Shown here: one piece after another, positions 13,065 to 51,773 of the stretch | How positions within the stretch are numbered: the stretch's first letter is position 1 | Layout: every line of letters begins with the position of its first letter | IMG/VR virus record: IMGVR_UViG_3300010412_000003 | Coordinates: 20,547 to 84,546 of that record | Direction: 5' to 3' (one strand) | Length of the DNA: 64,000 nucleotides | Source: a virus | The notes under the pieces: model-generated | What the model was told of the DNA's origin: nothing | The model's database searches: none | What the model saw: the letters and a program-made list of their open reading frames with translations, nothing else | Made by a program: the position numbers and the translations under genes

Positions 13065-13660
13065 TGGAAGCAATTATTACAATTTCTGGAAAAGCACAAG
13101 CAGGTAAGGATTTTTTTGCTCAGACGTTAAAGGAATACTTGGAAAAGGAGCATAACAAAAAAGTTGTTGTGATTCACTATGCAGATTATTTGAAATTTAT
13201 TTGTAAAGAGTATTATGGATGGAATGGAGAAAAAGATGAAGCTGGAAGAACACTGTTGCAAAAAGTTGGAACTGATGTTGTAAGAAAATTAAACAAAACA
13301 TTTTGGGTTGATACTGTTGTTAATTTCATCAATGCCTTTAGAAATGAATTTGATTGGTTTATTATTCCAGATTGTCGTTTCCCAAATGAAATTGATACAC
13401 TAAGATATATTTATGAAAATAAATTTGTTGCAGTAAATTTATACAGAACACAATATGGTGGTGTTTTTGAAAATACTCTAACAGAAGAGCAGAGAAACCA
13501 TCCATCAGAAATTGCTCTTGATGGCTACACTAAATACGACTTTACAATTGAAAATAATGGTTTGCAAAGCGGAATGAAATCTATGGTTCAATGGTTTGTT
13601 CATGAAGTTGAATATTTGTTTCAAGATAAAATTATATTAGAAAAGAGGGGAGAGTTTTAA
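13064..13660 (+). CDS. Deoxynucleoside monophosphate kinase
   Basis: A 198-residue P-loop kinase with Walker A GKAQAGKDFFAQTL at residues 9-22. The IIPDCRFPNEID segment is the substrate/lid-preceding strand typical of phage dNMP kinases (T4 gp1-like and adenylate-kinase-like relatives). It phosphorylates dNMPs to dNDPs for phage DNA synthesis. The stop overlaps the RNR start (TAATG), so it is directly coupled with ribonucleotide reductase. Confidence 0.8.
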   Translation: MEAIITISGKAQAGKDFFAQTLKEYLEKEHNKKVVVIHYADYLKFICKEYYGWNGEKDEAGRTLLQKVGTDVVRKLNKTFWVDTVVNFINAFRNEFDWFIIPDCRFPNEIDTLRYIYENKFVAVNLYRTQYGGVFENTLTEEQRNHPSEIALDGYTKYDFTIENNGLQSGMKSMVQWFVHEVEYLFQDKIILEKRGEF

Positions 13661-15648: not shown

Positions 15649-15650
15649 AA

Positions 15651-16121
15651 ATGCTTTACAATTACTCATGTATTAATTACGATGCGGAGGAAGTCTTGAA
15701 AATAAAGATAAAGTATTTTACAGATATTGAAAAAATTGGAAAAATTGATATTGGGGACTGGATTGATCTAAGACTGGCAGAAGATGTTGGTATTTATAAA
15801 GGTGAACACAGGCTTTTACCACTAGGTATTGCAATGGAACTTCCAAAAGGATATGAAGCTCACATTTTACCTAGAAGCTCTACATTCAAAAATTGGGGAA
15901 TTTTGATTGCTAACTCTATGGCAGTAATTGATGAGTCATATAATGGGGATAGTGACCAATGGTTTCTAAGTGTTTATGCAACAAGGGATGTTCTTATCAA
16001 TAAAAATGATAGAATTTGTCAGTTTAGAATTATTGAAAAACAACCAGAGATCGAATTTGTTGAAGTAGAAACATTGGGAAATGAAGATCGTGGTGGTTTT
16101 GGAACTACAGGTACAAGATGA
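15651..16121 (+). CDS. dut: Deoxyuridine triphosphatase (dUTPase)
   Basis: The five trimeric dUTPase motifs are present: IDLRLAED (motif 1 region), [11 protein letters not shown] (2), [14 protein letters not shown] (3), RICQFRI (4) and [11 protein letters not shown] (5, the glycine-rich arm). It hydrolyses dUTP to dUMP. The ATG at 15651 gives 156 residues. A TTG at 15696 with GGAGG five bases upstream would give a 141-residue protein starting [10 protein letters not shown], closer to the usual length, and may be the true start. It overlaps the next small gene. Confidence 0.9.
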
Positions 16122-16470: not shown

Positions 16471-16510
16471 TAAAAAAAATAGGATGCAATTTGGCATCCT
16501 ATTTTTTTAT
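16471..16510 (+). terminator. Bidirectional rho-independent terminator between convergent operons
   Basis: AGGATGC (16481-16487) pairs with GCATCCT (16494-16500). Flanking A-runs and T-runs extend the stem to about 14 bp, and on either strand a U-tract follows. It separates the rightward nucleotide-metabolism operon from the leftward late operon. Confidence 0.85.
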
Positions 16511-16594: not shown

Positions 16595-17509
16595 TTAGAA
16601 CTTCTCTGCAAACCAATGAATGATAGATTTTATCACTTTTGATAAGAAATCAACAAACTTTTCAAACCAATTCATATCTTCCTCTTCCACAGGTGGTTCT
16701 GGTGGAGCAGGTGGTACAGGTTCAGAAGGTGGTTCTGGTTCTTCAACCTCATACCCACCCCACATTAACATTTTCTTTAAACTAGAATTACCCTCTAACT
16801 GAGGGGTTTGAGGATAGTTATATGATGGTAATTTTTCTCTAAGCTTTGTATAAAACTCTTCCCACGTTAATCCAAATGGATTTTCTTTTATGGTTAGAAT
16901 TGCATAATAAGACATTGCACCATAATATTTACTTCCAAAATAAGCATCATAACTATATTCAGAATCACTAGAACCAGTTAAAAGAAGTTCTTTCATTTGA
17001 AATTCTTGCAAAAATTTTCCAGTTCTTTTTAATTCTGGTGTTAATTGGGGTGTTGATTCGTGTTTAAGAAATCTTGGTTTTGCACTTTCGGAAAATGGAC
17101 TTGCGAATCTTGTTGAAGTTCCACTAAAACAAGAATCAAGTATAATGTAAACAGCAACACCATCTGGAACTTTATTAAGAACAGACCTTAACGAATCATC
17201 TAGCAAAACACCATCAGAAACATAAAGTGCTTCATCATAATAATCTGGTTCATCACCATTCTGATCTGGAACTTGAGTTCCATGACCAGAATATGTCATA
17301 ACAATTACATCACCATAAGATGATGCGCCAATCATGTTTTCAAGCTTTTCAAGAATAACTTGTTTTTTTGCTTCACGATCTAAGATCACACTTACATCAA
17401 AACCAAACTTAGTTAAAACATCAAGCCAACCCATAGCATCATTTATGCAACCATTTAGATTTGCAGAACCACCATAATCGTTAATTCCAATGCATATTGC
17501 TCTTTTCAT
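16595..17509 (-). CDS. Metacaspase / caspase-like cysteine protease (peptidase C14)
   Basis: A 304-residue protein, started at ATG 17509 because AGGAGAGA sits right before it; an upstream in-frame ATG overlaps the previous gene. The caspase p20-like domain has ALNGCINDA-type features (NLNGCINDAMGW), catalytic His76 in YSGHGTQVPDQ and catalytic Cys127 in LDSCFSGT. The p10-like part includes LTGSSDSEYSYDA, GAMSYYAI and YPQTPQLEG. A proline-rich linker (EPEPPSEPVPPAPPEPP) then leads to a 25-residue amphipathic tail rich in Phe and Trp (WFEKFVDFLSKVIKSIIHWF). It would cleave after basic residues if it acts like other metacaspases. It lies with the endolysin at the end of the late operon. Confidence 0.88.
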   Translation of the reverse strand: MKRAICIGINDYGGSANLNGCINDAMGWLDVLTKFGFDVSVILDREAKKQVILEKLENMIGASSYGDVIVMTYSGHGTQVPDQNGDEPDYYDEALYVSDGVLLDDSLRSVLNKVPDGVAVYIILDSCFSGTSTRFASPFSESAKPRFLKHESTPQLTPELKRTGKFLQEFQMKELLLTGSSDSEYSYDAYFGSKYYGAMSYYAILTIKENPFGLTWEEFYTKLREKLPSYNYPQTPQLEGNSSLKKMLMWGGYEVEEPEPPSEPVPPAPPEPPVEEEDMNWFEKFVDFLSKVIKSIIHWFAEKF

Positions 17510-17517: not shown

Positions 17518-18342
17518 CTAAAAAATCCACTCAATACCACTAGTTGGTTCAAAATATTCGACAACATCAGGGTATAACAAATAAAGTGGCAAGAAACCAC
17601 CTGCTTTCTTTTCTGGAAGATCATTTCTGAGATTGATTCCATCTACAATCTGTTCTTCCATTCCCAAAAATGCAAGGTTTCCACCATCAAACCCAAACGG
17701 TCTAATCTTTTGATTTTCAACACCTGCATATTGAGTTCCATTTGCATACACCATAAACCAACCACCAGATTTCAAAACAATTCTTTTGCCAGCGGTATTG
17801 TCCAATCCTCTCAACTCTGCATTCTCATATGGATAAAGAACATTGTCTTTTACAATTTGAATTGGCGTATCTTTTCCAACTTTAACATAACCAACTCTTA
17901 ACCCATTGACTTTTGTAGCCCACTTTTCTTGTGGCAACTGCTTGAAGTTGACAAAATCTAAAACAGGTGGTTCTACAGGTGGCTCTGGCTCTACAGGTGG
18001 CTCTGAAACACCACTATCATCTTCATGGGCATGATCAAAAACATATTCATATTTGTGAATGTGTTTTTTATATTCTTCAACATGCTCTTCGAATTTTGTT
18101 ACATACTGAGAAATTGCATTGAAATTTTCAGATATTTTTTGAAAATTTTCATTGATTCTTTGACCGTTTTCTGCAATTAATTCCTCAAGCCCAAGTTCCT
18201 CTACAGCCTTTAATCTGGCAGAAATAATCGAGAGAGCAGAGTCAACATCTTCCTTTTTTGCAAAAAGAGAACCATCAAAAAACTCTTTAACCTTTTCTTC
18301 AATAAACTCCCCAAATAATGAAATAAATATTTTTTTTAACAT
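17518..18342 (-). CDS. Coiled-coil protein with proline-rich linker, lysis-cassette neighbour
   Basis: A 274-residue protein. The ATG at 18342 is chosen over an in-frame TTG because AAGGAG is 8 nt upstream. The N-terminus is short, hydrophobic and amphipathic (MLKKIFISLFGEFIEEKV). A coiled coil of about 80 residues follows (ENGQRINENFQKISENFN), then a histidine-rich hinge and a PPVEPEPPVEPP linker. The last ~140 residues form a beta-rich domain that I do not recognise (KRIVLKSGGWFMVYANGTQY). The linker closely resembles those of the neighbouring muramidase and metacaspase. It could be a holin-like, tail-surface or anchoring protein. Confidence 0.65.
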   Translation of the reverse strand: MLKKIFISLFGEFIEEKVKEFFDGSLFAKKEDVDSALSIISARLKAVEELGLEELIAENGQRINENFQKISENFNAISQYVTKFEEHVEEYKKHIHKYEYVFDHAHEDDSGVSEPPVEPEPPVEPPVLDFVNFKQLPQEKWATKVNGLRVGYVKVGKDTPIQIVKDNVLYPYENAELRGLDNTAGKRIVLKSGGWFMVYANGTQYAGVENQKIRPFGFDGGNLAFLGMEEQIVDGINLRNDLPEKKAGGFLPLYLLYPDVVEYFEPTSGIEWIF

Positions 18343-18354
18343 ATACAAATCTCC

Positions 18355-19230
18355 TTATAAATAATCAACTGGATACATAAACACTTCAACCTTGTGTTCA
18401 TGCTCAATTGGCTCTGGTGGAACAGGTGGTTCTGGAATTGGTGGAACAGGTGGTTCTGGCTGAGAAACAAAACTCAACCAGTCATAAAACTCCTGCTTTT
18501 TTCTTCTTGTAATATTAAAATCCAATTCATCAGAATCAAAACCTAATTCAATTCCAATATTACTTGCAGAAACAACCTGCCACATTTCCCAATCATTTGC
18601 CTGTCTTTCTGGTGGCATAGTTGGCTTATATTCTAATGTCAAAAACACCTTTTCCCAAAAGGATTTAAACTGATCTGTTAACCCATTAGCCCAATTTGCA
18701 TATGGGTATTGTGCAATCCAAAATGGAAAATTTTTACCCTCTGATGTATACGGGGACAGCCAATCCTTGTAATCATATCTATTTGCATATAAAATAATTC
18801 TTTTATTTGGAAACCTTGTTTGAAGCTCTTTCATAAATTTTATTGTATTTAAAGCAAAAACACTTGATTTTTCATTATAATATTGTTCAAAATCCATAAC
18901 AAAAAATGAAAAATCTTTTCCCTCACAAAATAAAAGAAATGCACCCAACTGCCTTTTCCAATCAGAGTGGCTTGAAAAATACCAATATGCACCAAGAGGT
19001 ATTCCAAGCTTTGATGCTATAGAATAATTTTTATCAAAATTGACATCTTTATAAATTCCACCATTTTGTGCGCCATATCCAGCACGTAAAACAATAAAAT
19101 CCATAACCTTTTCAAATATCTCCATATCAACCTTGCTTAAATCCCAATTACCTTTGTGGTGACTAAAGTCAGCACCAGTTGCATATGGACTTTTTGAAAT
19201 TAAATCTAAAATCCATTCTGTTTGATTCAT
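18355..19230 (-). CDS. GH25 muramidase (endolysin)
   Basis: A 291-residue protein starting at ATG 19230, with AGGAGG 5-6 nt upstream. The GH25 lysozyme fold is indicated by TGADFSHHKGNWD (catalytic-region Asp21) and VMDFEQYY (Asp113 and Glu115 in the DxE motif). IPLGAYWYFSS and the WIAQYPYANWA end of the barrel also fit. It cleaves the MurNAc-GlcNAc bond of peptidoglycan. After residue 245 it has a PEPPVPPIPEPPVPPEP linker and a short His-rich tail instead of a recognisable wall-binding domain. It is the likely lysis enzyme, though a tail-associated role is possible because it follows the fibre genes. Confidence 0.85.
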   Translation of the reverse strand: MNQTEWILDLISKSPYATGADFSHHKGNWDLSKVDMEIFEKVMDFIVLRAGYGAQNGGIYKDVNFDKNYSIASKLGIPLGAYWYFSSHSDWKRQLGAFLLFCEGKDFSFFVMDFEQYYNEKSSVFALNTIKFMKELQTRFPNKRIILYANRYDYKDWLSPYTSEGKNFPFWIAQYPYANWANGLTDQFKSFWEKVFLTLEYKPTMPPERQANDWEMWQVVSASNIGIELGFDSDELDFNITRRKKQEFYDWLSFVSQPEPPVPPIPEPPVPPEPIEHEHKVEVFMYPVDYL

Positions 19231-19239
19231 AAACACCTC

Positions 19240-20607
19240 CTAAAACCAAGATGAAATAACATTAGAAGATAAGGCTGTATAAGTCAATTCAAGCAATGGT
19301 CTATCACCAGCAGTTCCTGAACCACTTGAATAATACCATTTCCCTGTATAGTGACCGCCAGATTGTGTTTCAGCTATATTATAACCATTGTTTACATATG
19401 TTGAGTTAATCCAGTTGTCAAAATCTGTAATTAAAATATTAGAAAAAACAATGTCCGATGGTTCAGTTGGAGAAGTAGTATATTGATAACTTCCACTTAC
19501 TGTTGAAACAATATCACCGGTTGTGTTTGTACCCCCACCACTACTCCAGTTGTTGTTGGTTTTGTATATTTGCCATGTTGCCTGAGTCTCAACCCAATCC
19601 CTCTCGTCACGTATTCTTCTCATGCTATTTGTGTGGGGAAAGTCAAGGTTTTGTGAGCTATACAACCGAAGAGTTAAATCTGCCGAAACACCACTTTGGT
19701 AATCGTCAAGACCTGTAAAATCAAATCTTATCAGTGTTGTATTTGCATTCGAAGCACCATTAACTCTTCCAACAAGAACATTTGACCCATTAGAGTTTGT
19801 TGTTGGACTAACTTGGGAAAGATAACAATCCTGACCCGTTGTATCGTCTGGTTGATAATTCCATGTTGGGTCAATGACAACTGGAAATATAGCGTTTTCC
19901 AACCAACTTGATTTAACACCTGACAAAACATATACACCACTGGAATCCTCAATAAAAAACTGCTCAACAGACGCTTCTTTAGAGGCATCACCACTCGATT
20001 CTGTAGCAACACCACCAAATATAGAAATGCTTTCATTTTTTAAATTCTTGCTTTTTATTCTTTTTGATAAGTTGCTTATTTGAGAACCAACCTTTGTAAC
20101 AATTACAAGGTGAGTTCCATTTATAGATGGCATTTCGTTAATGTGAAGATTTTCCTTTATTCTTCCACTTTCATGAACAACATATTCAGATGAATAATTT
20201 TTATCAATTATTTTTTTAAAATTTTTTCCGTTAAAAAATCCAGTTTTTTTATCAAATGTAGATAAAATTTTGAGAGTGTTTGTTTTTTGGTCATAATCAC
20301 CAATCCCAATTGTATGATGATAAAAACCTCTTGATGGAATAAAAACACTTCCATCATCACCTATCTCAAAATCAATATTTATGTCCCTGATCTTTTTTTT
20401 TCCAGAATTTCCATTTTCGAATGTTGAAATAATTGGGAACATAGCCCTGTTAACCCGATCATATTTATGAACTGGAAACTGAGCCAAAACTGCCTTTACC
20501 ACACCCCTTTCCTCTGTTCTGTAAATTATACCATTGTGTATTCTTCTTTTAACTTGAAGGTTATCATTTTTTTTATTAACATGGCTTGTCCATTCACTTT
20601 CTATCAT
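19240..20607 (-). CDS. DNRLRE-domain virion protein
   Basis: A 455-residue protein. The N-terminal ~240 residues are beta-rich without a recognised domain. From about 245 the sequence follows the DNRLRE pattern: DCYLSQVSPTTNSNGSNVLV, TTLIRFDFTGL, TLRLYSSQN, ERDWVETQATWQIYKTNNNW and a late DFDNWINSTYVNNGYNI. DNRLRE domains are carbohydrate-associated beta-sandwich modules found in surface proteins. It is probably a receptor-binding or fibre component, consistent with its place between fibre genes and lysis genes. Confidence 0.68.
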   Translation of the reverse strand: MIESEWTSHVNKKNDNLQVKRRIHNGIIYRTEERGVVKAVLAQFPVHKYDRVNRAMFPIISTFENGNSGKKKIRDINIDFEIGDDGSVFIPSRGFYHHTIGIGDYDQKTNTLKILSTFDKKTGFFNGKNFKKIIDKNYSSEYVVHESGRIKENLHINEMPSINGTHLVIVTKVGSQISNLSKRIKSKNLKNESISIFGGVATESSGDASKEASVEQFFIEDSSGVYVLSGVKSSWLENAIFPVVIDPTWNYQPDDTTGQDCYLSQVSPTTNSNGSNVLVGRVNGASNANTTLIRFDFTGLDDYQSGVSADLTLRLYSSQNLDFPHTNSMRRIRDERDWVETQATWQIYKTNNNWSSGGGTNTTGDIVSTVSGSYQYTTSPTEPSDIVFSNILITDFDNWINSTYVNNGYNIAETQSGGHYTGKWYYSSGSGTAGDRPLLELTYTALSSNVISSWF

Positions 20608-20622: not shown

Positions 20623-21990
20623 TTATGGTAATCTGACTTCCATTGTTATAGAACATCCTTGTGCTGGTGTTGTGTGAACAGAATCAATTGTCATTCTAAT
20701 CAAATCCGCAGTTTGAATATCATCATTCGATGTGTTAATTGTTACAGATGATATTGTTGTACTGCCACTATCAAATGTGATAAGCCCAGAGCAAATTTCA
20801 ACCCAAGAACCTCTGTACCTCTCAACCGAAACAATCATCGAACCAGTTGTTCCTGCTGTCATTGCAACACCTTCAAAGTTAACAACATTCATACCATTCC
20901 AAGCATCAGGAACTTTGAAAACAAATTTAACACCAGTAGAACAATCTGTTGATGGCTCTACAAGTTGTACAATAATACCCTTTGTTCCCAAGTTAGAACC
21001 AGCCAGCGCATCTGGTGTAATTGTTCTTGATGTGTCAGTTCCAGTATTGACCTCTGCAACTGTTGCAAGTTCTGATTTTCCAGCCAATGATGTTGTTGCC
21101 TGACTAACCGCTGATGTCACATCACCAGACCAAGCTGGAACACCACCACTAACAGTTAATACATTTCCAGATGAACCAATTGGCAAAGATGTAATTTCAG
21201 AAGCACCAGATGCATACAAAATGTCACCAGTCGTTCTTGCAAATGGGGAAATGTACCCCCTCCAAGATGTTCCATTAGAATAAAAATATCCAACCTGATT
21301 CTGCCTTACAGTTCCAATTGTTGTTGTTCCACTATCTTCTTTTACAACAAGGTCTTCATCACCATCAGCAGTATTATGAATAATAAAAATTGGATTAAAA
21401 GCACTTTCTGCTGGAAGAAGAATATCACGATTCACCCCATTAGGGTCTAAATATTGAATTGATGCGCTATAATCATTTAAAGTTTTTGTTGTAGATAATG
21501 TCTCTGTATTTTTTTTATAAACCCCAACATTTTGAATTGCAGAGACAACAACCCAAGCTGTTCCATTATATTTTAAATAATACTCTCTATTCTTTCCAAG
21601 ATCATTGCCATCAATGTTTTGTACATTACCATCATTGTCAATCTTATATACTGTTTTAACACCCAATGAGTTGATGTTCAAGGTAACTGCTCCATTAGAT
21701 GTTTGACTCAGTTTTAATATGATCTTAAGATCAGTTGTATATGATGTGATTGCGCTAATTCCAGTTGCCTCATAAAGACTTCCAGAATTATAAGTTGCAC
21801 TAACTGGAATAGCACCCCTCTGTGTTTCAAGAGTGTCTATACTTGATTGAATATCGGTTAGTGCTGTTTCAATTTTTGTCATATTGCTATTTGTAGTGCC
21901 ACACATATCAAGACGATAATCCAAAAATAATTCTATTGTGTCACTTGAATCATAAAGAGTTAGGTTATAATTCGTTGTAGTTGATACCAT
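20623..21990 (-). CDS. Tail fibre / baseplate appendage protein
   Basis: A 455-residue protein with the N-terminal pattern of Gram-positive phage baseplate fibres (NYNLTLYDSSDTIELFLDYR, then NSNMTKIETALTDI). This pattern probably attaches to the tail tip. The centre is a chain of beta-strand segments with LKLSQTSNGAVTLNINSLG and YLKYNGTAWVVVSA repeats typical of fibre shafts. The C-terminal ~110 residues form a compact beta domain (TGVKFVFKVPDAWNGMNVV) that may bind the receptor. Strong GGAGG site before the ATG. Confidence 0.7.
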   Translation of the reverse strand: MVSTTTNYNLTLYDSSDTIELFLDYRLDMCGTTNSNMTKIETALTDIQSSIDTLETQRGAIPVSATYNSGSLYEATGISAITSYTTDLKIILKLSQTSNGAVTLNINSLGVKTVYKIDNDGNVQNIDGNDLGKNREYYLKYNGTAWVVVSAIQNVGVYKKNTETLSTTKTLNDYSASIQYLDPNGVNRDILLPAESAFNPIFIIHNTADGDEDLVVKEDSGTTTIGTVRQNQVGYFYSNGTSWRGYISPFARTTGDILYASGASEITSLPIGSSGNVLTVSGGVPAWSGDVTSAVSQATTSLAGKSELATVAEVNTGTDTSRTITPDALAGSNLGTKGIIVQLVEPSTDCSTGVKFVFKVPDAWNGMNVVNFEGVAMTAGTTGSMIVSVERYRGSWVEICSGLITFDSGSTTISSVTINTSNDDIQTADLIRMTIDSVHTTPAQGCSITMEVRLP

Positions 21991-22011
21991 AAAGTCCTCC
22001 TTATGTTATTT

Positions 22012-22485
22012 TTATGTAGCCACATAATCCAAGTCTCCTAATGTCTCAACGTCAAGAGTTCCAAGTGTTGACGCATCCCAATCTGAAAGGTTATAAAATA
22101 CCGCTAAAATTGGAGTAAATGCATTAGAAAAATTAAAATTTGAAATTGTGGTTATAACTTTACTATTTTCTTTCCATGTAAGTGATAAAACACTAACCTG
22201 AGAAATTGTTTTTGATAAATACTCTTTAAACTTCATAGAAAAAGTATTTACCCTTCTACCACCATTTAAGTCAAAAGTCAAATATTCTTTAAATTTAATA
22301 TTATAAGCAACATTTATCAAAGCACTCATTGTTATACTAAATTGCTTACTTACTTTCATTGCGAAAGTTATTGGAAATTTTTGAACAATTTGAACAAACC
22401 AACTATCAGATGGTGTAAACCCTCTAATTACTAGATCAAAGGCTTTTTTTGTAACAATATTAACATTAAAAGATATAGATGGCAT
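22012..22485 (-). CDS. Hypothetical structural protein
   Basis: A 157-residue beta-rich protein in the fibre cluster. It has recurring hydrophobic-polar strands and two similar segments (NIKFKEYLTFDL and SMKFKEYLSKTI), suggesting internal duplication. It ends with SDWDASTLGTLDVETLG. No family is recognised; a minor virion component is likely from context. Confidence 0.55.
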   Translation of the reverse strand: MPSISFNVNIVTKKAFDLVIRGFTPSDSWFVQIVQKFPITFAMKVSKQFSITMSALINVAYNIKFKEYLTFDLNGGRRVNTFSMKFKEYLSKTISQVSVLSLTWKENSKVITTISNFNFSNAFTPILAVFYNLSDWDASTLGTLDVETLGDLDYVAT

Positions 22486-22502
22486 TTCTACCCCTTTGTC
22501 TT

Positions 22503-22910
22503 TTATGAGTTAACAATGCTAACAACAATTGCACCAACCGCAAAATAAACTACAGTACCAGATTGCACAACTCTTGATGGAGACAAAGCACCAAAATAAA
22601 GCATGTTTCCACTCGTTAATGCATCAGAAATGAAAACATATGTAATTGTACCCCAAGATGCAGAGCTTTCTGCGAAAGAAACCTGAACAGTATTTGATAA
22701 AGAACCACTTGATGCGTTTCCCCATTGCGATTTTGTATTTGTTAAACTTGCCCTAGCATATGAACCACCAACTGGTTCTGTTGCACCAGTTCCATCATTG
22801 TTAATTGTTGTAGTAGAAAGACCAAAGTACAATGTTGATGGAACTGTATAGTTTGTAGCACCAAAGTCTTTGTCTAAAATTCTATTAGATTGATAATAAG
22901 TAATACTCAT
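22503..22910 (-). CDS. Minor virion protein (small tail appendage/collar type)
   Basis: A 135-residue protein with a pattern common in phage minor structural proteins: STLYFGLSTTTI, then GGSYARASLTNT, QWGNASSGSLSN, ASWGTITYVFISDA and GNMLYFGAL. It is beta-rich with no signal peptide. Position between fibre genes and the BppU-like protein supports a place at the tail tip. AGGAGG lies upstream. Confidence 0.6.
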   Translation of the reverse strand: MSITYYQSNRILDKDFGATNYTVPSTLYFGLSTTTINNDGTGATEPVGGSYARASLTNTKSQWGNASSGSLSNTVQVSFAESSASWGTITYVFISDALTSGNMLYFGALSPSRVVQSGTVVYFAVGAIVVSIVNS

Positions 22911-22922
22911 GTGTATAACCTC

Positions 22923-23273
22923 CTAGTCATTTTGTATTCTTGGAACAATTGTCAGGATGCCCTGTGATGGTCTAAATTCATTTTGATCTAAGTCTGTAAT
23001 TACTGGTTGATGAATAAATTTTCCCTCTAAGTCAACCGTATCTACTGAATCAATTTCTATCTCAAATGTATTTGTTCCAGTTTTAGTTCCAGTTTTAGTT
23101 AAAATGGCAGTGTCAGGTTGCCCATAATAACTCATTGTCCATTCAACTGTTGATGATGTGATGTCAATTAAAACACCAAGTTCATCATACACATTGAATT
23201 CTAAAATATAATTTGTACCACCAATGAAAATAATTTCCTCAAGATCATTGATGTTAGAGTAAACATTTCTCAT
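22923..23273 (-). CDS. BppU-N-like Ig-fold baseplate protein
   Basis: A 116-residue all-beta protein: FIGGTNYILEFNVYDELGVL, then IDITSSTVEWTMSYYG, then TNTFEIEIDSVDTVDL. This is the layout of the N-terminal Ig-like domain of baseplate upper proteins (G-T-x-Y-x-L-x-F followed by D-hydrophobic-T). It probably decorates or links the baseplate and fibres. Confidence 0.55.
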   Translation of the reverse strand: MRNVYSNINDLEEIIFIGGTNYILEFNVYDELGVLIDITSSTVEWTMSYYGQPDTAILTKTGTKTGTNTFEIEIDSVDTVDLEGKFIHQPVITDLDQNEFRPSQGILTIVPRIQND

Positions 23274-23292
23274 TTATATTCACCCCACTTTT

Positions 23293-23556
23293 CTAAATAT
23301 GTTTTTCAACTATTTCTTTATTAGGAACTTCAAGATTCATAACCTCTTCTAAAACCATTTCCAATACTTGATCAAGATCAATTATTGTATTCATTGACTT
23401 CATAAACATTTGCATGTTTCCATGACCTCTAACCTCTACTGCTTGAAGACCATTATACATTTCTATCAATGATTTTTTTACAACATCAATTTTTTGACCT
23501 AAACTTAAATCCCTAATATCTTTTTTTTGTTGATTGTCACCAACTACGTCATTCAT
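23293..23556 (-). CDS. Hypothetical small helical protein
   Basis: An 87-residue acidic, mostly helical protein (KIDVVKKSLIEMYNGLQAVE, then IDLDQVLEMVLEEVMNLE). AGGAG precedes the ATG. No motif is recognised. Position between Tal and the baseplate proteins suggests a chaperone or small structural role. Confidence 0.55.
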   Translation of the reverse strand: MNDVVGDNQQKKDIRDLSLGQKIDVVKKSLIEMYNGLQAVEVRGHGNMQMFMKSMNTIIDLDQVLEMVLEEVMNLEVPNKEIVEKHI

Positions 23557-23564
23557 TTTATCTC

Positions 23565-26231
23565 CTAAATACCAATTGAATAAGAATATAATATGCCTTT
23601 ATAAAACCTAAGTGTAGCATATCCAGTATAAACAACTGCTGTGAGTCCATAAGTTCCGTTTATAACAAAATAATCTGTATCAACTCTAAATGTAACAGTG
23701 TTACTTCTTATCTGGCTATTACCAGTGAGATATAAAATACCACCCTGCAAGTCAAGATAAGAACTTCCATAAAGCAATAAGTTTGTTGCTTGAAATGATG
23801 TTACAGTAGAGCCAAGATTTATTTGTGCATTACCAGCACCACCAATAGTTCCACCCCAAACCCTACTGCCACTCATACTTCCAGTAGTAACATAACCTGC
23901 ATTAATACCACTTCCAATTTGCCCACCATTAATAGTTCCATAAATGTTGTCAGCATAAATTGTTCCAGAGAAACTTGCTGTACTGCCATCTATGCTCAAA
24001 GCACCCAATTTTATTTTACCATTGCTCCTGATGTAATTTCCAAGATTATCATACAGACTGTTTGAATTAATATTCCAACCACCAATAGTACCACTACTGG
24101 CACTAATACTCCCGCTAAAAGTTCCAGTAGCACCAGATAAATCACCAGAAAAAACCAAATTTCCACTTCCATCAGCATAAAACCTATCAACCCAAGTACC
24201 ACCAGTGTTACCTTGAATTTTTATTCCATTTGTTGGGTCAATATAAACCCTACTGCTATCTGTTTCAAGAGAGATACTACCATTTGATATTGAAACACCA
24301 GTTGCATCAACAACAAAACTCAAATCCTCATTTTGAATTGTCAATGTGTTTCCAGCAATTAAATTTCCAACAATTGTATCAGCAACCAGACCATAATGTG
24401 TAACCCCACCAACATCCACTCTTCCAAGTGCAACTTTTGCTGTTGCCCAATCATCATCTGTAAAAGCCAATACATTGTTTGTTAGCCAAACCTGTTCATC
24501 ATCAAATGTTACACCATTCCATTGTCTTCCACGAAGACCAGCACCATCTATGATAATATCCTGATCTGATGTTGAAACAAGATTGTTCACTGTTGCATTT
24601 AATGCAGAGCTAATAAATGTTGTTACTTCATCTTTATGACTTTCACTCCAATTGTTCCAGTCCTGTTTGTTAAAGCTAACAGTTGCGCCAAGATTGTTTA
24701 TTTGACCAAAAAGATCACTAAATACATACGCACTTGTATCTGATCTAAGCCTATTGCTTAAAATTAAGGAAAATTTATCTGGATTGTCATAGTTTATTTT
24801 AACCTCTAGTATAATTGAAGTTGTAATTTGACCATTTGGAAGTTCAACTGTTACAGAAGAACCAACTTCGAGATCATTTGAAAAAGATTGAAATTCTTGC
24901 ATGGCAAGAAAATTTATACTATCTGCTTCAAAAATATATCTTGGTTGTGAAATTCTACCCAAAACACTTTTCCCTTGATCATACAACAATTGAGATTGAT
25001 CTTGTTTTTCAGAATCAGTCATAATATCAGTTTGAATTATATTTGGATTTTGATATGTGTTTTCAAAAGTAAATTCTGACAACTCAGCAAGTTCACTTTC
25101 TGTAAAATTGCTTTCAAATGAAACTATATTATTAATATCTACCAAAGATTGTTGCAAAACTATAATTTCATTTTGCTTTGAAATAATTTCAATGTTTTTA
25201 GAATTTATTAAAGCTTCTTGATTATCTATTTGTGTTTTTATATCATCTGTTGCCAATCCTTGTTGAATTCTGCTTGCTAATATTTCTTCAAGACCAGCAA
25301 GGGTTGAAAGTAAAGCTACCAACTCCCCTTGTAAAACAATTAAATCATCATATGCGGTTTTTAAAGTCGTTAACGTAGCACCATATGTTGATTCATAACT
25401 TGCCACCAAAGCTTCCCAAGCTGTTAATTTGGTAATCAAATTTTGACTCATCCAATCTGTATTTTTATAATATGAAAAGTCATATATCGTTGCAGAACCA
25501 AGTGGATTTACAGACCTGATGGTAAGATTTCCACCACCATAAACGCTTAGTGCAGTTGTTATTTCATCATCCATTTCTTGCAATTTTGCTTGTTTCAAAA
25601 GATTATCGAATGATAAAAATATATCCGTTTGCGAAACAGCACTATCAATTGAATCAACTTTTATTATATTATTTATGGTATCAAATGAAAAAATACATTC
25701 ATATGCATTAGAAACATCATTCATTAGAAAGTTGTAAACATTTGTATCCTGAACATCAAATGTTCTAAATTTTGCCGAAATAGAAGCATCAACACTTCCA
25801 ATGCTCCAAGATGGTAAAAGGTTTACAACTTCTTGTAAAAGAGTTCCATCTGGTGATACGGCATCATAAAACTGATATGTCCCACCAAAACCAGTTAGTC
25901 TTTTTTTTGACATTTTGAATTCAATAGAAATTGCAATTACATTTTTAATATCAACACCACCATTTGTATCCTCTGGTGCTTTAATAATTTCAAAATAACC
26001 AATACCTTCAACTTTAATTAATCTTTTAACTACAATGTAATTATAAACTGATAATTCGATGCCATTTACATTTTTTGGAATTGTAAATGATATTTCACTC
26101 ACTGCATTAAATCTTGGTGTATATTCAACATCATAAGCCATAGAAAGAGAATAAATTTCTGTTTTATCTGGATTACATAATGTCAATGCTGGTTTTTCAA
26201 GTCTGCTAAAAATGTCATATGAAACTTGCAT
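23565..26231 (-). CDS. Tail-associated (Tal-like) baseplate hub / minor tail protein
   Basis: An 888-residue protein immediately downstream of Dit. The first ~400 residues match the Tal/gp44-like hub (PALTLCNPDKTEIYSLSMAY, VSEISFTIPK, YFEIIKAPE, SIEFKMSKKRL). A coiled-coil region follows (residues ~290-370). The C-terminal ~350 residues are a repetitive beta shaft (GTIGGWNINSNSLYD, GSGINAGYVTTGSMSGSRVW) like tail-spike stalks. No peptidase motif is obvious. Its start overlaps the Dit stop (TAATG-like), showing coupled translation. Confidence 0.75.
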   Translation of the reverse strand: MQVSYDIFSRLEKPALTLCNPDKTEIYSLSMAYDVEYTPRFNAVSEISFTIPKNVNGIELSVYNYIVVKRLIKVEGIGYFEIIKAPEDTNGGVDIKNVIAISIEFKMSKKRLTGFGGTYQFYDAVSPDGTLLQEVVNLLPSWSIGSVDASISAKFRTFDVQDTNVYNFLMNDVSNAYECIFSFDTINNIIKVDSIDSAVSQTDIFLSFDNLLKQAKLQEMDDEITTALSVYGGGNLTIRSVNPLGSATIYDFSYYKNTDWMSQNLITKLTAWEALVASYESTYGATLTTLKTAYDDLIVLQGELVALLSTLAGLEEILASRIQQGLATDDIKTQIDNQEALINSKNIEIISKQNEIIVLQQSLVDINNIVSFESNFTESELAELSEFTFENTYQNPNIIQTDIMTDSEKQDQSQLLYDQGKSVLGRISQPRYIFEADSINFLAMQEFQSFSNDLEVGSSVTVELPNGQITTSIILEVKINYDNPDKFSLILSNRLRSDTSAYVFSDLFGQINNLGATVSFNKQDWNNWSESHKDEVTTFISSALNATVNNLVSTSDQDIIIDGAGLRGRQWNGVTFDDEQVWLTNNVLAFTDDDWATAKVALGRVDVGGVTHYGLVADTIVGNLIAGNTLTIQNEDLSFVVDATGVSISNGSISLETDSSRVYIDPTNGIKIQGNTGGTWVDRFYADGSGNLVFSGDLSGATGTFSGSISASSGTIGGWNINSNSLYDNLGNYIRSNGKIKLGALSIDGSTASFSGTIYADNIYGTINGGQIGSGINAGYVTTGSMSGSRVWGGTIGGAGNAQINLGSTVTSFQATNLLLYGSSYLDLQGGILYLTGNSQIRSNTVTFRVDTDYFVINGTYGLTAVVYTGYATLRFYKGILYSYSIGI

Positions 26232-27022
26232 TATCCACCAACCTTTCTTGCAAATTGATATGTCATGTCAACTTGAGATAAAGAACCAGAAAATGTTATT
26301 GTATTTCTTCCTTTGACAAGCCTGAACCAATTTTTATTAAAATTAGACAATCTTCTCAAGGCAGTTGAGCTTGAAATTGTTCCAAGCTCATTATTAATTG
26401 TAATTATCTCACCAGATGTTAGTCCAGTAAATTCAAAAAGCCTATCATTATCCTGAGATACTGATATGCTAAAGTCACCACCAAATTCATTTGCAGTTAT
26501 TTCTAAAGATGGATAATTATAATCATTATCATTTGATAGATTATAAAAATCTACTATGCTATTTACATCAGCATCAGTAAATGAATATGTTTTTGTTCTT
26601 GGAAAAGTCCACGCAAAAGGACTGTCGCAAACAACGGTTGCCTTTACACCACGAATAATGTTTCCAACTTTATTAACTTGTGGGTTTGTCAAAAAACAAT
26701 TAAAATAAACATCTTGCATATCAGATTGTAAAATTTGCAATTTTTTATATTGACTATGACCAAAAAGCCATGATTGAATATGCCCAATATCAGGAGAAGT
26801 TATTTCTCTTGGACTATTGAACGAAACATCAAATTCTAAAGCAGGAGATTGTTTTGCGCCAAGCAAATAGTTTTTTGACTTTCTGTAAAGACTTTCTACG
26901 TACAGTTCAACATTGCTTGAGCCAGTTACATCAACATCACCACCATTTGGTGATGCAATGTATAAAGAGTAGAGTTCTGATGGTTTTCCATCGAAAATAA
27001 AACTTGCTCCCCAAAAACTCAT
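26231..27022 (-). CDS. Distal tail protein (Dit)
   Basis: A 263-residue protein with the Dit pattern: N-terminal FWGASFIFDGKPSELYSLY, then a belt region with LEFDVSFNSPREI and IQSWLFG. KGVKAT-like IRGVKATVVCDSPFAWTFPR marks the end of the ring domain, followed by a C-terminal galectin-like beta domain. Dit forms the hexameric ring joining tail tube and fibres in siphoviruses. The order tape measure-Dit-Tal is the canonical order. Confidence 0.82.
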   Translation of the reverse strand: MSFWGASFIFDGKPSELYSLYIASPNGGDVDVTGSSNVELYVESLYRKSKNYLLGAKQSPALEFDVSFNSPREITSPDIGHIQSWLFGHSQYKKLQILQSDMQDVYFNCFLTNPQVNKVGNIIRGVKATVVCDSPFAWTFPRTKTYSFTDADVNSIVDFYNLSNDNDYNYPSLEITANEFGGDFSISVSQDNDRLFEFTGLTSGEIITINNELGTISSSTALRRLSNFNKNWFRLVKGRNTITFSGSLSQVDMTYQFARKVGG

Positions 27023-27039
27023 AGAAACCTCCTAAAATT

Positions 27040-27067
27040 ATATGGTGTGGATTTCTCCACACCATAT
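27040..27067 (-). terminator. Perfect 12-bp hairpin between tape measure and Dit
   Basis: ATATGGTGTGGA (27040-27051) and its exact complement (27056-27067) flank a 4-base loop that reads GAAA on the minus strand. AATTTT follows in the direction of transcription. It could be a weak terminator or an mRNA 3'-end stabiliser separating tape-measure from Dit levels. Confidence 0.6.
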
Positions 27068-30000
27068 TTATATTGAATAACTACCAGCACTTCTTGTAAA
27101 GCCTCTCAAATTCATTATTTGATTTATTTTATCAATAACCTGTTGAGAAATCTTTTCAATATCTGGTACAACATTTTCATCTAAATTACCTGCAACATTA
27201 ATTTCCATTAATTTTTCAACACTGAAATTAACCTCTTTCGTAACAATTCTTGGTGTTCCAGTTAGTGTTAAGTTTGCAAGGGCATCACCAGCAGATGCAA
27301 ATGCACCAGACATAGAAGAACCACCCATTGCTGTGCTTAGTGCCTGATTAGCAATCATTGCATCTGCACTTTGAATTGCGCTTGATGGTGCTGGTGTTGA
27401 CTGTTGTGTTGGAATATAGCCCAATGCCTCCCTCAATTTATTAATAAATTGTTGAACATTGTCAGCTTGAATGTTTTCGATAATAGAAATTGCATTTGCA
27501 ATTTGATCTTCAAACCTTTGCCTCTCTTCTTCAAGCATTGCTTGTTGTTGATCAACTGCATGTTCAAATTGAAATGTTTCCAACTCTTGTTGTTGTTCAG
27601 ATAGTTGTGCTTCTAATTCTTGTCTCCTTCTTTTTGCTTCTTCCGAAGTGTCTAAAGATAGTTCAAGAATTTCTTTTTGAAGATCAGCAATACTCTTTTG
27701 CTTATCTTGTAGTTCATCTTGGTAGCGTTTCTCAGCAACCATAGTATCTAAAAGCTGTTTTCTTTTATTAATAATTTTGTTGTAAGAATCCAACTGATCT
27801 TTGAGTGCTTCGATTTGCTTTTTACGCATTTCCTCAACTGCATCAGCAAGGTCATTTGTAGCACTTGTAGCACCAGATATAGCATCCTCAAGATCATCAT
27901 AAACATCAGTTACCTGACCACCAGCACCAGTAATTTGATTCAGTGGTTGTGTCAAATTGTAAATGTCATTGCCTAAATTGATATTGCTTGCCATTCCCTG
28001 CAAACTAGCACCAAATTGGCTAATAGCATTCCCAATAGATTGCATAGATGTGCTTGAGCCACTAATGTCAAGTTGAAAAGTTGGAATCCCAATGTAAGTT
28101 TGAAAAAGACCACCAGCATCTATTGGGAAATTAGTCATTCCCCCTGTCCACACTGGTTGGAAATTTATTTGAGCATCAAATTGACCAATTGCATCACCAA
28201 GAGTTACAAGCAAATCACCAGCAGACATTACAAGTGCTGAAATTGCATTTCCAGTTGCTCCTGCGGTTTGCTGTGTAAAGCTATTAAAGTTCTCTTGAGA
28301 TTGCATCATCCATGTTGCTATTTGACTTGCGCTAGAAAAAACATTTCCCTGCAAGTCTTGAACTTGAACACCAGCATTAAATGCCAGTTGTGCCATATTT
28401 TGTGCATAAGCCTGAAATTCTTGAGTTCCAATTCTTAAATTTTCAGTGGCTTGAAGTTGAACAACTTTCGCAATTTCGAAGTTTAATTTTTGAAGTTCTC
28501 CCAATTGAATTGTAGCATTAGACATTTGATCTAACGAATCACTAACTTCAATGCCACTTGCATCAGCAACAGAACCTAATTGCTGAAATACACCCATAAC
28601 CCCTATCAATTGCTCTGAATATGACAAAATATCCATTTCGCCAGCATCAAACATTGATGAAATTTGAGCAAGAGAACTTGATGCATCTGAAACTAATCCA
28701 GCAAACAATAACTGTTGTTGCTCACCAACTAAATCACCAAAGTCTGCTTCCGAAAGTTGTCTTTGCAATGCATCGAAATATTGTGTTGCAGAAAGCTCAC
28801 CCTCTTCAAATTGTCGAGATATTTCACCTATTGCTTCCGAAAAACCACCCAAGCTTCCAGTTAGTCCAGATGCTTGCAATGCAACATCTTGTAAAAACTG
28901 AGCATAGTCCCTAGACATGGGGATTGCTCTTTCAAGTTGGGATATGTATGCATCATAAAACTTAAGTTCTTTTTCACTAGCACCAGCCATCATTGCTTCA
29001 AATTTTGCCGTATATGCCTTTTGAACATTAAGTTTTTGAAGTTTTTCTGTGTTAAGAGTAATAATATCACCCTCAATTTCTAACAGATCAACCCAACTTT
29101 CATACTCTTCTGATAGAGCCATAATATCATCAATGGATAAAGCTCCCTCTAGTGATTTCTTTGAAATATCAATTGTTTTTGAAATTGAATTGTGAAGATC
29201 ACCAAATATATCTCTTAGGTCTTTTACCTCTTCTTCAACTTCCCCAAGACCAGATGCTAATCCATCTAGGTTTTCAAGATATTCCTCCATGAAAGAAGAC
29301 ATATCACCTGTTTCTTCACCTAATGCATTTTGTGCCTTCCATGCTTCGTATAATTCTTCACTATATGCTGGAAGTGTTGTGCTATAAAGCCTCTCAATTT
29401 GACCATTTGCCTTTTCATGTTCGGCATAAAGTCTTCCCTCTTCATCAATGTTTTTGTTTAATACTTTAGCACCATCTCTAAGAGCATTTAGATATTCTTC
29501 ATAAGATGTTGTTGATTTTCTAAGTTGCATTTCAAATGCTTCAAATGCATCAAGCTTTAATAATTCTTTGTTTATAAAACTTGATTCAATTCCGTCACCA
29601 ACGGCACTCTCTATTGCCTCTATTCCAGTTTTAAGTGTATCAGTTAATGCACCAAGATCATCACCAGTATCTTCTGCAACTTTTGCAAAAGTATCTTTAA
29701 ATTGTTGCTTTAAGTTCTCCGTTCCTTCTTCTGCTGTTCTTACAACATTATTATAAGCCTGAAAAGCTTTTATAACAGAATAAATTGCAATTGCAACAGC
29801 ACCACCAACAACTGCTGTACTACTCATTAAACCATTTAGGGTAAGTATAGTTCCATTAAGTATACCCAAGTTTGATATATTCGCAATCAGTATTGGAATT
29901 AAGTTACTTAATACAAGCCAAAAGTTTTGAAAAAATGTAATAATCCCAATTGCTTTTGTTCCGATTAGTTCTGCATTTAACAAAGCAATAAAGAAAACAA

Positions 30001-31225
30001 TTCTTTCTATAAGTTTCGGAATTCCACCTGCTTTGTCAAGAAGTTCAAGCATTGAAGTTCCAAGGTCATACATTCTTCCAATTGCTTCTGATGTTACTGC
30101 ATCCTGCCACAAACCTTCCCATGTAGCCTTAAATGTGTTAGCCCTAGCCTCCACACTTTTCATATAAATTTCAAATCTTTCTAATGCTCTTCCAGATGCA
30201 TCTGCTTGCATTTCCTGAAACTCTAAAACATCGTTAAAGTTTTCCATAAGCACAAGGAAGTTTTCTCTTTGCCTGACACCAGCAACAGCAATTGCTATAT
30301 ATGATTTTTCCTTTTGAGACAGAGTTTCCCATTCAAGAGACAATTCATATAAAACATCATCCATATCTCTAAATTGTCCCTTTGCATCAAAAAGAGTTGT
30401 GTTTGTAAATGCTTTTAAAACTTTTTCAACATCAGAAGCTGATTCTCCAACTTCATCCAGTTGGTTTAATTTCAAATTCTGCATACGTGCAAAAAGTGTT
30501 TTAAAAGATTCACCAATACTACCAGCACTCTTTCTTGTTACGCTAGAGACTGTTGCAATATAAGCCACAAGGGTATCAAAATCAACACCTGCCTGTTGTG
30601 CAGAATTTGACGACCTCTTTAATGCCTCTGCCAACTCAGCAACACTTGTTGCGCTTTGATTATCAACCTCAACCAACTTATCTAAAACTGTAATTGCATC
30701 CGTTGCCTCAAGCTTAAAACCATTTAAGATTGATGTTAGATATTCTGTCGCTTGGGCAGACTCCATGTTGGCAAGTTTACTTGCAATCAAACTTGCACGT
30801 ACAAGTTCTTGCGCTTCCTCTGCTGTCTTGCCTTGTCTAAACCACTCCAAAGAACCTTCTGCTACTTCAATCGTGGTAGCACCCATTTCTTTTGCAAGGT
30901 TATTAAATTCAGAAGAGAGTTGACGTATTTCATCACTTGTTTTTCCAGTAACAATTTGGACTGCTGTCATTGACTTGTCAAGGTCTTTGATATACTCAAC
31001 ACCCTTTCTAAGTTGTTGTAATGTACCAAAAACAGCACCTGTTGCCAATGTCCATTCAAGAGTTTTCTTTATTGCATCACCAATACTCTGAGACAAACCT
31101 TTAACATCTTTTTGCGCCTGTTTTGCGCCTATATTAATTTTCTTTTCAGAAATTTTTTTGGTTTGAGATTCTAACTCTTTGGTATCAATTGTTGCTGTAA
31201 AAATTACTTTATATTTATCAACCAT
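27068..31225 (-). CDS. Tape measure protein (TP901 core)
   Basis: A 1385-residue protein started at ATG 31225, preceded by AAAGGAGGGG. Residues ~35-330 carry the TP901-type core: TLEWTLATGAVFGTLQQL, DLDKSMTAVQIVTGKT, EMGATTIEVAEGSLEWFRQG and SAGSIGESFKTLFARM. Hydrophobic helices follow near 410-490. A long charged coiled coil lies near 1150-1260 (KRRRQELEAQLSEQQQELET). The length predicts a tail of roughly 200 nm by the usual ~0.15 nm per residue rule. It sets tail length and is probably ejected during infection. It is the first tail gene after the recombinase insertion. Confidence 0.88.
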   Translation of the reverse strand: MVDKYKVIFTATIDTKELESQTKKISEKKINIGAKQAQKDVKGLSQSIGDAIKKTLEWTLATGAVFGTLQQLRKGVEYIKDLDKSMTAVQIVTGKTSDEIRQLSSEFNNLAKEMGATTIEVAEGSLEWFRQGKTAEEAQELVRASLIASKLANMESAQATEYLTSILNGFKLEATDAITVLDKLVEVDNQSATSVAELAEALKRSSNSAQQAGVDFDTLVAYIATVSSVTRKSAGSIGESFKTLFARMQNLKLNQLDEVGESASDVEKVLKAFTNTTLFDAKGQFRDMDDVLYELSLEWETLSQKEKSYIAIAVAGVRQRENFLVLMENFNDVLEFQEMQADASGRALERFEIYMKSVEARANTFKATWEGLWQDAVTSEAIGRMYDLGTSMLELLDKAGGIPKLIERIVFFIALLNAELIGTKAIGIITFFQNFWLVLSNLIPILIANISNLGILNGTILTLNGLMSSTAVVGGAVAIAIYSVIKAFQAYNNVVRTAEEGTENLKQQFKDTFAKVAEDTGDDLGALTDTLKTGIEAIESAVGDGIESSFINKELLKLDAFEAFEMQLRKSTTSYEEYLNALRDGAKVLNKNIDEEGRLYAEHEKANGQIERLYSTTLPAYSEELYEAWKAQNALGEETGDMSSFMEEYLENLDGLASGLGEVEEEVKDLRDIFGDLHNSISKTIDISKKSLEGALSIDDIMALSEEYESWVDLLEIEGDIITLNTEKLQKLNVQKAYTAKFEAMMAGASEKELKFYDAYISQLERAIPMSRDYAQFLQDVALQASGLTGSLGGFSEAIGEISRQFEEGELSATQYFDALQRQLSEADFGDLVGEQQQLLFAGLVSDASSSLAQISSMFDAGEMDILSYSEQLIGVMGVFQQLGSVADASGIEVSDSLDQMSNATIQLGELQKLNFEIAKVVQLQATENLRIGTQEFQAYAQNMAQLAFNAGVQVQDLQGNVFSSASQIATWMMQSQENFNSFTQQTAGATGNAISALVMSAGDLLVTLGDAIGQFDAQINFQPVWTGGMTNFPIDAGGLFQTYIGIPTFQLDISGSSTSMQSIGNAISQFGASLQGMASNINLGNDIYNLTQPLNQITGAGGQVTDVYDDLEDAISGATSATNDLADAVEEMRKKQIEALKDQLDSYNKIINKRKQLLDTMVAEKRYQDELQDKQKSIADLQKEILELSLDTSEEAKRRRQELEAQLSEQQQELETFQFEHAVDQQQAMLEEERQRFEDQIANAISIIENIQADNVQQFINKLREALGYIPTQQSTPAPSSAIQSADAMIANQALSTAMGGSSMSGAFASAGDALANLTLTGTPRIVTKEVNFSVEKLMEINVAGNLDENVVPDIEKISQQVIDKINQIMNLRGFTRSAGSYSI

Positions 31226-31241
31226 AGATTCCCCTCCTTTC

Positions 31242-31284
31242 ATACGATATTAAATACGATGTTAATATTAAGTTAATATCGTAT
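31242..31284. repeat. 12-7-12 inverted repeat plus third copy; candidate recombinase core or operator
   Basis: ATACGATATTAA (31242-31253) is followed at once by ATACGATGTTAA (31254-31265). A 7-base centre (31266-31272) follows, then TTAATATCGTAT (31273-31284), the exact reverse complement of the first copy. Two inverted 12-mers around 7 bases is the geometry of tyrosine-recombinase core sites, and the adjacent third copy would be an extra binding arm. It lies between the recombinase stop and the tape-measure start. A repressor operator or poor terminator are alternatives. Confidence 0.55.
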
Positions 31285-51111: not shown

Positions 51112-51115
51112 TTAG

Positions 51116-51183
51116 CAGAGAGTGAAGGCATCGAACCTCCGTTAAGTGTTTTGGAGACACTTTTCTTGCCAAAAGAACCCTCT
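51116..51183 (-). tRNA. tRNA-Trp (anticodon CCA) with reduced D-arm
   Basis: The acceptor stem AGAGGGT/ACTCTCT has one G-U pair. The anticodon stem AGTGT/ACACT encloses CTCCAAA, anticodon CCA. The T-arm is GGAGG-TTCGATG-CCTTC. The discriminator is G, as expected for Trp. Only about 15 bases separate acceptor and anticodon stems, so the D-arm is shrunk to TCTT/AAGA around a 5-base loop. CCA is not encoded. Function may be altered by the small D-arm. Confidence 0.8.
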
Positions 51184-51404
51184 GTATTGTGTGGTTGTTT
51201 TTGATTTTGATCATCACAGGGTTTAGCTGATTAGATCATACCAGCATCCCTACCACACGAATCCGCTGGTTATTCTATAACTTTTTGGCTGGTAGTTGCA
51301 TAGCATCATTCCAGCCGACAAACATATAAAAACTATAACCATGTTTCGCTTGTCCGTTTACGGCTGTGTACACTTGCGCCTTGAAACATGAAAACATCTG
51401 CAAG
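51184..51404 (-). other. Structured spacer between tRNA-Trp and tRNA-Asn (tRNA-sized non-tRNA elements)
   Basis: No credible gene is present. A 70-base element is closed by a 7-bp stem (51189-51195 with 51252-51258) but lacks a T-loop. A 73-base element is closed by GGTTAT/ATAACC (51268-51273, 51335-51340), with an inner GGCTGG/CCAGCC stem. A third is closed by CATGTTTC/GAAACATG (51340-51347, 51383-51390). They could be decayed tRNAs or further domains of the large RNA. Confidence 0.45.
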
Positions 51405-51768: not shown

Positions 51769-51773
51769 ATTTT

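What the first reader, a model, noticed from the sequence alone, without database searches (positions are those of the whole stretch)
16595..17509. Phage-encoded metacaspase in the endolysin cassette
A caspase-fold protease with both catalytic residues intact (His76 in YSGHGTQ, Cys127 in LDSCFSG) lies two genes from a GH25 muramidase, at the very end of the late operon. A proline-rich linker connects it to an amphipathic Phe/Trp-rich tail suited to membrane contact. Caspase-like proteases in bacteria are known mainly from host-side programmed death and defence systems. An intact copy among phage late genes suggests a role in lysis timing, in killing the host, or in cleaving a host or phage protein at the membrane. 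The coupling to lysis is inference.
Basis: partly seen in the sequence, partly recalled or inferred. Interest (0 to 1): 0.78.

Follow-up and report, generated by a model that had tools for sequence, protein, structure and literature searches.

The report
Phage metacaspase beside the endolysin
This phage carries an apparently intact metacaspase, a protease best known from cell death, at the end of its late genes next to the enzyme that dissolves the bacterial wall, and unrelated phages repeat the pairing with different wall enzymes, which suggests that some phages use such proteases to help burst their hosts.

Summary
Window 16595-17509 (minus strand) encodes a 304-aa p20+p10 metacaspase. The His76/Cys127 dyad is intact, and both residues are invariant in 40 homologues. 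An acidic Pro/Glu linker leads to a strongly amphipathic C-terminal helix. It is the last gene of the late operon, one gene from a GH25 muramidase and just upstream of a bidirectional terminator. Only these last three late genes carry the Pro/Glu linker.

An IMG/VR scan gave 52 viral metacaspase loci. Among 21 records with a recognisable wall hydrolase, the metacaspase lies within 1 kb and co-directional in 7 (about 0.7 expected). Six hydrolase families are involved, at about six places in the tree. The window's nearest relative also follows a GH25. Some others neighbour holin-like or lipoprotein genes, and several carry transmembrane, lipobox or amphipathic anchors. Two Magnetococcales proteins fuse Amidase_2 to a metacaspase.

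Two limits apply. Close chromosomal bacterial homologues share the caspase-linker-tail architecture without wall hydrolases, so the tail is not a phage invention. Most distant viral homologues are not beside hydrolases. Best reading: a membrane-tethered accessory lysis protease, perhaps switched on by calcium at permeabilisation (untested). I found no earlier report in the papers searched.

The parts
16595..17509 (-). Metacaspase (Peptidase C14, p20 + p10), 304 aa, His76/Cys127
   Evidence: Pfam PF00656 4.1e-26; PDB profile match to yeast Mca1 1.3e-60 over p20 and p10; AF2 model pLDDT 90, pTM 0.80; Foldseek top hits metacaspases
16598..16675 (-). C-terminal amphipathic helix (MNWFEKFVDFLSKVIKSIIHWFAEKF)
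   Evidence: Helix 280-303 in the model; moment 0.70, 0 of 5000 shuffles as high
16676..16760 (-). Acidic Pro/Glu-rich linker of the metacaspase (approximate bounds)
   Evidence: Sequence; such linkers occur only in the last three late genes of the window
17518..18348 (-). Middle gene: N-terminal amphipathic segment, predicted coiled coil, Pro/Glu linker, unknown C-terminal domain; probable ATG start at 18342
   Evidence: model without an alignment is poor (pLDDT 41) but shows long helices 2-104; no family hit above cut-off
18355..19236 (-). GH25 muramidase (endolysin) with a C-terminal Pro/Glu-rich linker
   Evidence: PF01183 1.3e-11; PHROG 291 endolysin 1.4e-19
19240..20607 (-). 455-aa protein between the tail fibre gene and GH25, weak Disaggr_repeat similarity; part of the segment absent from relative L143
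   Evidence: 3.5e-5, below the curated cut-off
16473..16508 (.). Bidirectional intrinsic terminator closing the late operon
   Evidence: z = -5.6
20623..31243 (-). Tail genes upstream of the cassette in the same operon (fibre-like, minor tail, Dit, tape measure)

Best explanation
The gene encodes a catalytically competent, membrane-peripheral metacaspase that works as an accessory lysis protease, made late and together with the GH25 endolysin. Shown computationally: the metacaspase family and fold, an intact dyad, co-directional and tightly spaced position at the end of the late operon, Pro/Glu linkers shared by the three last genes, an amphipathic C-terminal helix, and recurrence of metacaspases beside unrelated wall hydrolases in other phages. 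Inferred: the tail holds the enzyme at the inner face of the cytoplasmic membrane; it stays quiet until the membrane is breached, because metacaspases with a p10 domain generally need calcium; it then cuts envelope or lysis proteins after Arg/Lys and so helps the muramidase to open the cell or release progeny.
For: Family and fold. Dyad plus the probable S1 acidic residues (D24, D125) invariant in 40 sequences. Cassette: last three late genes, gaps of 6 and 8 nt, shared linkers found nowhere else in the window, bidirectional terminator. Comparative: the sister sequence L010 (bootstrap 97/96) overlaps the stop of a GH25 gene; L009 precedes a PF11860 muramidase (1.7e-71), L011 follows an Amidase_2 and L028 precedes an Amidase_3; L019 lies two genes after a weak SLT match; L052 lies about 0.3 kb from an M15_4 peptidase, in a family searched without prior sight of adjacency. 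Overall 7 of 21 records within 1 kb and co-directional against 0.68 expected, none of 40,000 random placements as many; restricted to records of at least 35 kb, 4 of 18 against 0.40, P about 4e-4. Small transmembrane proteins are enriched at +/-1-2 genes (25/161 against 62/739, Fisher p = 0.006); L047 follows a holin (PHROG 1.1e-6). Terminal TM, lipobox or amphipathic segments in L010, L012, L014, L017, L020 and others. Amidase_2-metacaspase fusions in Magnetococcales. In the related phage L143 the late operon ends without the GH25-middle-metacaspase segment, so the three behave as one unit.
Against: No biochemical evidence. No holin was recognised beside the cassette in this phage. Close bacterial homologues have the same linker and tail but no wall hydrolase in the flanking genes printed. 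Most distant viral homologues are not adjacent to a recognised hydrolase; 14 of the 21 records with one do not have it within 1 kb and co-directional. Part of the hydrolase family set was chosen after adjacency had been seen. L019's SLT protein resembles a baseplate-hub domain and L009 lies among tail genes, which fits a virion role as well. Calcium dependence and the substrate are inference.
Confidence: 0.55

Rival explanations
1. Virion-associated entry enzyme: GH25, the middle protein and the metacaspase are tail or baseplate components that open the envelope (wall, S-layer, surface proteins) at infection.
For: The cassette directly follows tail genes; L009 lies between tail completion and sheath genes; L019's SLT protein resembles a baseplate hub; no signal peptide is obvious on the GH25 or metacaspase sequence.
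Against: Homologues with C-terminal TM helices (L010, L012), a lipobox (L014) or an N-terminal TM (L020) are poor virion parts; L047 sits beside a holin; in relative L144 the same end of the operon carries TM, holin-like genes.
Confidence: 0.15
2. Anti-defence or host-takeover protease: it cuts host membrane-associated defence proteins (for instance gasdermin-type or other death effectors) during infection, and its place next to the endolysin only reflects a permissive end of the late operon.
For: Bacterial gasdermin operons couple caspase-like proteases to pore formers, sometimes near lysozymes or amidases (PMC9612521); PADLOC's caspase profile matches; most distant viral homologues are not beside hydrolases.
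Against: Late position; no sensor, adaptor or gasdermin-like partner recognised in the adjacent genes; preference for hydrolase neighbours above chance.
Confidence: 0.13
3. Passenger or lysogenic cargo gene taken from bacteria, protecting the lysogen (superinfection exclusion, defence) or having no role in the phage.
For: Viral and bacterial sequences are interleaved in the tree, so transfers are frequent; bacterial homologues have the same architecture; a tyrosine recombinase-like gene in the 20 kb outside the window hints at lysogeny.
Against: Promoter-like matches are at the shuffled level and none marks a separate unit; co-operonic with GH25; dyad conserved throughout; shared linkers link the three genes.
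Confidence: 0.1
4. Maturation protease: it processes the GH25, the middle protein or a structural protein, rather than a host target.
For: Tight gene linkage and matching modular architectures; Arg/Lys specificity is usual for metacaspases (PMC5756287).
Against: Partners differ completely between phages (six hydrolase families); the shared linkers contain almost no Lys/Arg to cut.
Confidence: 0.07

Closest known systems
Bacterial stand-alone metacaspases of KSB1/Calditrichota/Chloroflexota/Bacteroidales (L061-L068)
   Same: 46-53% identity for the five best; caspase domain, Pro/Glu-rich or Gly-rich linker, C-terminal TM or amphipathic helix
   Different: Chromosomal single genes; no endolysin or phage genes seen among the flanking genes printed
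Type I metacaspases (yeast Mca1/Yca1, T. brucei MCA2), calcium-dependent
   Same: p20 and p10 align end to end; dyad and probable acidic S1 positions conserved
   Different: Viral gene, linker-tail at the C terminus, lysis neighbourhood; calcium dependence untested
Metacaspases of eukaryotic giant viruses (medusavirus, HaV01; PMC6450098)
   Same: Virus-encoded metacaspase; they make up the top structural hits in BFVD
   Different: Viruses of eukaryotes, thought to act on host cell death; no endolysin cassette
Bacterial gasdermin operons with caspase-like proteases (PMC9612521)
   Same: Caspase-like protease tied to membrane rupture; wall hydrolases sometimes nearby
   Different: Host defence; no gasdermin recognised here
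Holin-endolysin-spanin lysis cassettes of phages
   Same: Position at the end of the late operon with an endolysin and a coiled-coil/amphipathic partner
   Different: No protease of this family is described as a component, to my knowledge; no holin recognised here

Membership tests
Metacaspase (Peptidase C14B, clan CD) | p20 domain with His-Cys dyad | tested here: met
   PF00656 4.1e-26; His76/Cys127 invariant in 40; fold
Metacaspase (Peptidase C14B, clan CD) | p10 domain following p20 | tested here: met
   Profile aligns to yeast Mca1 through p10, positions 2-248
Metacaspase (Peptidase C14B, clan CD) | Acidic S1 pocket for basic P1 | tested here: inconclusive
   D24 and D125 invariant; their equivalence to MCA2 D95 and D211 rests on spacing from Cys and on memory
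Metacaspase (Peptidase C14B, clan CD) | Arg/Lys-specific, calcium-dependent activity | not testable with these tools
   Needs purified protein
Orthocaspase (p10-less) | Absence of p10 | tested here: not met
   p10 present
Phage lysis cassette component | Co-directional with an endolysin in the late operon | tested here: met
   recurrent in other phages
Phage lysis cassette component | Holin in the same cassette | tested here: not met
   No holin-like gene beside it; the middle gene could fill that place but is untested
Phage lysis cassette component | Required for or alters lysis | not testable with these tools
   Needs genetics
Bacterial gasdermin-caspase defence pair | Adjacent gasdermin or sensor domain | tested here: not met
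   No such hit for the three upstream genes tested in PADLOC or Pfam; only the caspase profile matches

The most novel reading that the evidence does not exclude
Phages have repeatedly recruited metacaspases from bacteria as membrane-tethered lysis executioners that calcium influx turns on when the membrane is breached: a proteolytic lysis function beside holins, endolysins and spanins.
Probability: 0.25. Interest if true: 0.9.

Novelty: new variant of a known kind. Interest (0 to 1): 0.66.

Why it matters
Metacaspases are studied as cell-death and defence proteases, and phage lysis is described with holins, endolysins and spanins. If phages use metacaspases in lysis, a protease joins that list, and the caspase fold acts on the side of the virus as well as the host. 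The claim is directly testable: one gene, one catalytic cysteine, a defined tail and a neighbouring muramidase. Nothing comparable turned up in the papers searched, though that library lacks most subscription journals.

Tried and rejected
Single-protein scans of IMG/VR with the metacaspase, GH25 and middle gene found no confirmed relatives. An eight-row alignment was too diverse to scan with; a five-row one worked. No phage-family name: PHROG 18397 (unknown function) matches only weakly. The middle gene could not be placed: no homologues and a poor model. The BFVD search gave giant-virus metacaspases and no confident phage protein. Considered and dropped: orthocaspase (p10 present), caspase-EACC1 effectors (far below the NCBIfam cut-off), gasdermin pair (no partner). 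L060's lysozyme is on the opposite strand and was not counted as co-directional. The MCA2 structure paper is not held, so the S1 mapping stays provisional. The amphipathic tail as a phage-specific adaptation was rejected, because bacterial homologues have comparable tails. No Rfam RNA in the region.

Full report
What is there. The window is bases 20547-84546 of an 84,546-base IMG/VR virus record with 33% GC. The finding's gene is on the minus strand, 17509..16595, 304 aa, with AGGAG five bases before its ATG. Pfam places residues 2-246 in Peptidase_C14 at 4.1e-26. phmmer against the PDB gives GSU0716 (1.9e-23) and plant and fungal metacaspases, and a profile of 40 homologues aligns through p20 and p10 to yeast Mca1 at 1.3e-60. 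The AlphaFold2 model (40 sequences, pLDDT 90, pTM 0.80) matches metacaspases best. His76 and Cys127 are invariant in those 40, as are D24 and D125, which by spacing should be the acidic S1 positions of type I metacaspases (from memory). Characterised metacaspases cut after Arg/Lys and, when p10 is present, generally need calcium (PMC5756287). That this one does is prediction.

Anatomy. After the caspase domain come an acidic Pro/Glu linker and the tail NWFEKFVDFLSKVIKSIIHWFAEKF, a predicted helix with hydrophobic moment 0.70 (0 of 5000 shuffles as high). The gene is the last of a minus-strand late operon and faces the convergent early genes across a 15-bp bidirectional terminator at 16473-16508. 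Upstream, with gaps of 8 and 6 nt, are a 276-codon gene with an amphipathic N terminus and coiled coil, and a GH25 muramidase. A scan of all ORFs in the window for such linkers finds them in these three proteins; the next two hits are weaker and look like non-coding frames. That argues for a three-gene unit. In relative L143, whose minor tail protein is 41% identical, the tail fibre gene is followed directly by the convergent dUTPase and RNR genes, and GH25, the middle gene and the metacaspase are all absent. In relative L144 the end of the operon has a multi-TM gene and a TM/coiled-coil gene of holin-like look. The end of the late operon thus seems to be a lysis-gene site in this lineage, though two relatives are few.

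Relatives. One of 50,697 INPHARED phage records has a homologue, a 485-kb huge phage at 30%. An alignment-based scan of IMG/VR found 52 loci. In a 75-row tree the window pairs with L010 (97/96), and viral and bacterial rows are interleaved: at least seven label changes are forced by well-supported branches. So these genes have moved between bacteria and viruses repeatedly. The nearest bacterial homologues (46-53% for the five best) are chromosomal, with the same caspase, linker and TM or amphipathic tail, and no wall hydrolase in the flanking genes printed. The architecture is therefore older than, or independent of, the lysis setting. C-terminal TM metacaspases are also known from cyanobacteria (PMC3501461).

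Test of the lysis link. L010 overlaps the end of a GH25 gene; L009 precedes a PF11860 muramidase; L011 follows an Amidase_2; L028 overlaps the start of an Amidase_3; L017 lies two genes after a glucosaminidase; L019 lies two genes after a weak SLT match. I then searched the whole records for nine hydrolase families. Twenty-one have at least one above cut-off; in seven it lies within 1 kb and co-directional, against 0.68 expected from random placement (none of 40,000 simulations reached seven). With records of at least 35 kb only, it is 4 of 18 against 0.40 (P about 4e-4). The families involved are GH25 (twice), Amidase_2, Amidase_3, SLT, PF11860 and M15_4. Caveats: several families were added because I had seen them beside a metacaspase; random placement ignores the clustering of late genes; M15_4 (L052) and Phage_lysozyme were searched without such prior sight, and of their four records one is co-directional within 1 kb and one (L060) is close but on the other strand. 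Small TM proteins are over-represented within two genes (p = 0.006), with one confident holin (L047) and weak ones at L045 and L030. Several viral proteins carry TM, lipobox or amphipathic ends, which fits membrane work in the infected cell better than a place in the virion. Independently, two Magnetococcales proteins join Amidase_2 and Peptidase_C14 in one chain.

Mechanism. The best-supported account is an accessory lysis protease held at the membrane by its tail and made with the endolysin. My preferred trigger is calcium entering through the first breach, as damage-triggered calcium activates plant metacaspases (Hander 2019, cited in PMC7206013); this step is hypothesis, and neither the substrate nor the calcium site was tested. 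An entry role, an anti-defence role, a passenger gene and a maturation protease remain possible, in that order (see rivals).

Novelty. Metacaspases in giant viruses of eukaryotes are reported (PMC6450098), and bacterial gasdermin operons join caspase-like proteases to membrane rupture (PMC9612521). I found no report of phage metacaspases in lysis cassettes in eight searches of an open-access library; subscription journals are mostly missing from it. The enzyme is a member of a known family. The phage setting, repeated with different wall hydrolases, is the new part.

Noticed in passing
L084:6060-8798 and L086:5922-8786: Magnetococcales chromosomal proteins of 913 and 955 aa that fuse an N-terminal Amidase_2 to a C-terminal metacaspase; the middle of about 480 aa is unassigned.
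   Followed up: partly
L070:6265-14438: A Rhodoferax metacaspase between a contractile tail-sheath gene and a 1838-aa protein with CHAT and TPR-S domains, suggesting an injection-system or effector setting.
   Followed up: partly
L009:10001-10963: The L009 metacaspase ends in a segment that reads like a SAP/LEM-type helical domain instead of a membrane tail; not tested.
   Followed up: no
L018, L020, L021, L029, L030: A viral clade with membrane or amphipathic segments and, in some, Pro/Glu linkers at the N terminus rather than the C terminus.
   Followed up: partly
L090:6739-8777: In Paenibacillus senegalimassiliensis a metacaspase directly follows a Trypsin_2 protease gene, and its nearest viral row is L040.
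   Followed up: no
50678-51846: Five tRNA genes (Gly, Trp, Asn, Pro, Lys) in a cluster on the minus strand.
   Followed up: no
G000:C1:5422-6279 (outside the window): An ORF that looks like a tyrosine recombinase, so the phage may be temperate; judged by eye only.
   Followed up: no
13660-16121: Ribonucleotide reductase with a class II (B12-type) insertion-domain match, followed by dUTPase, converging on the late operon.
   Followed up: no
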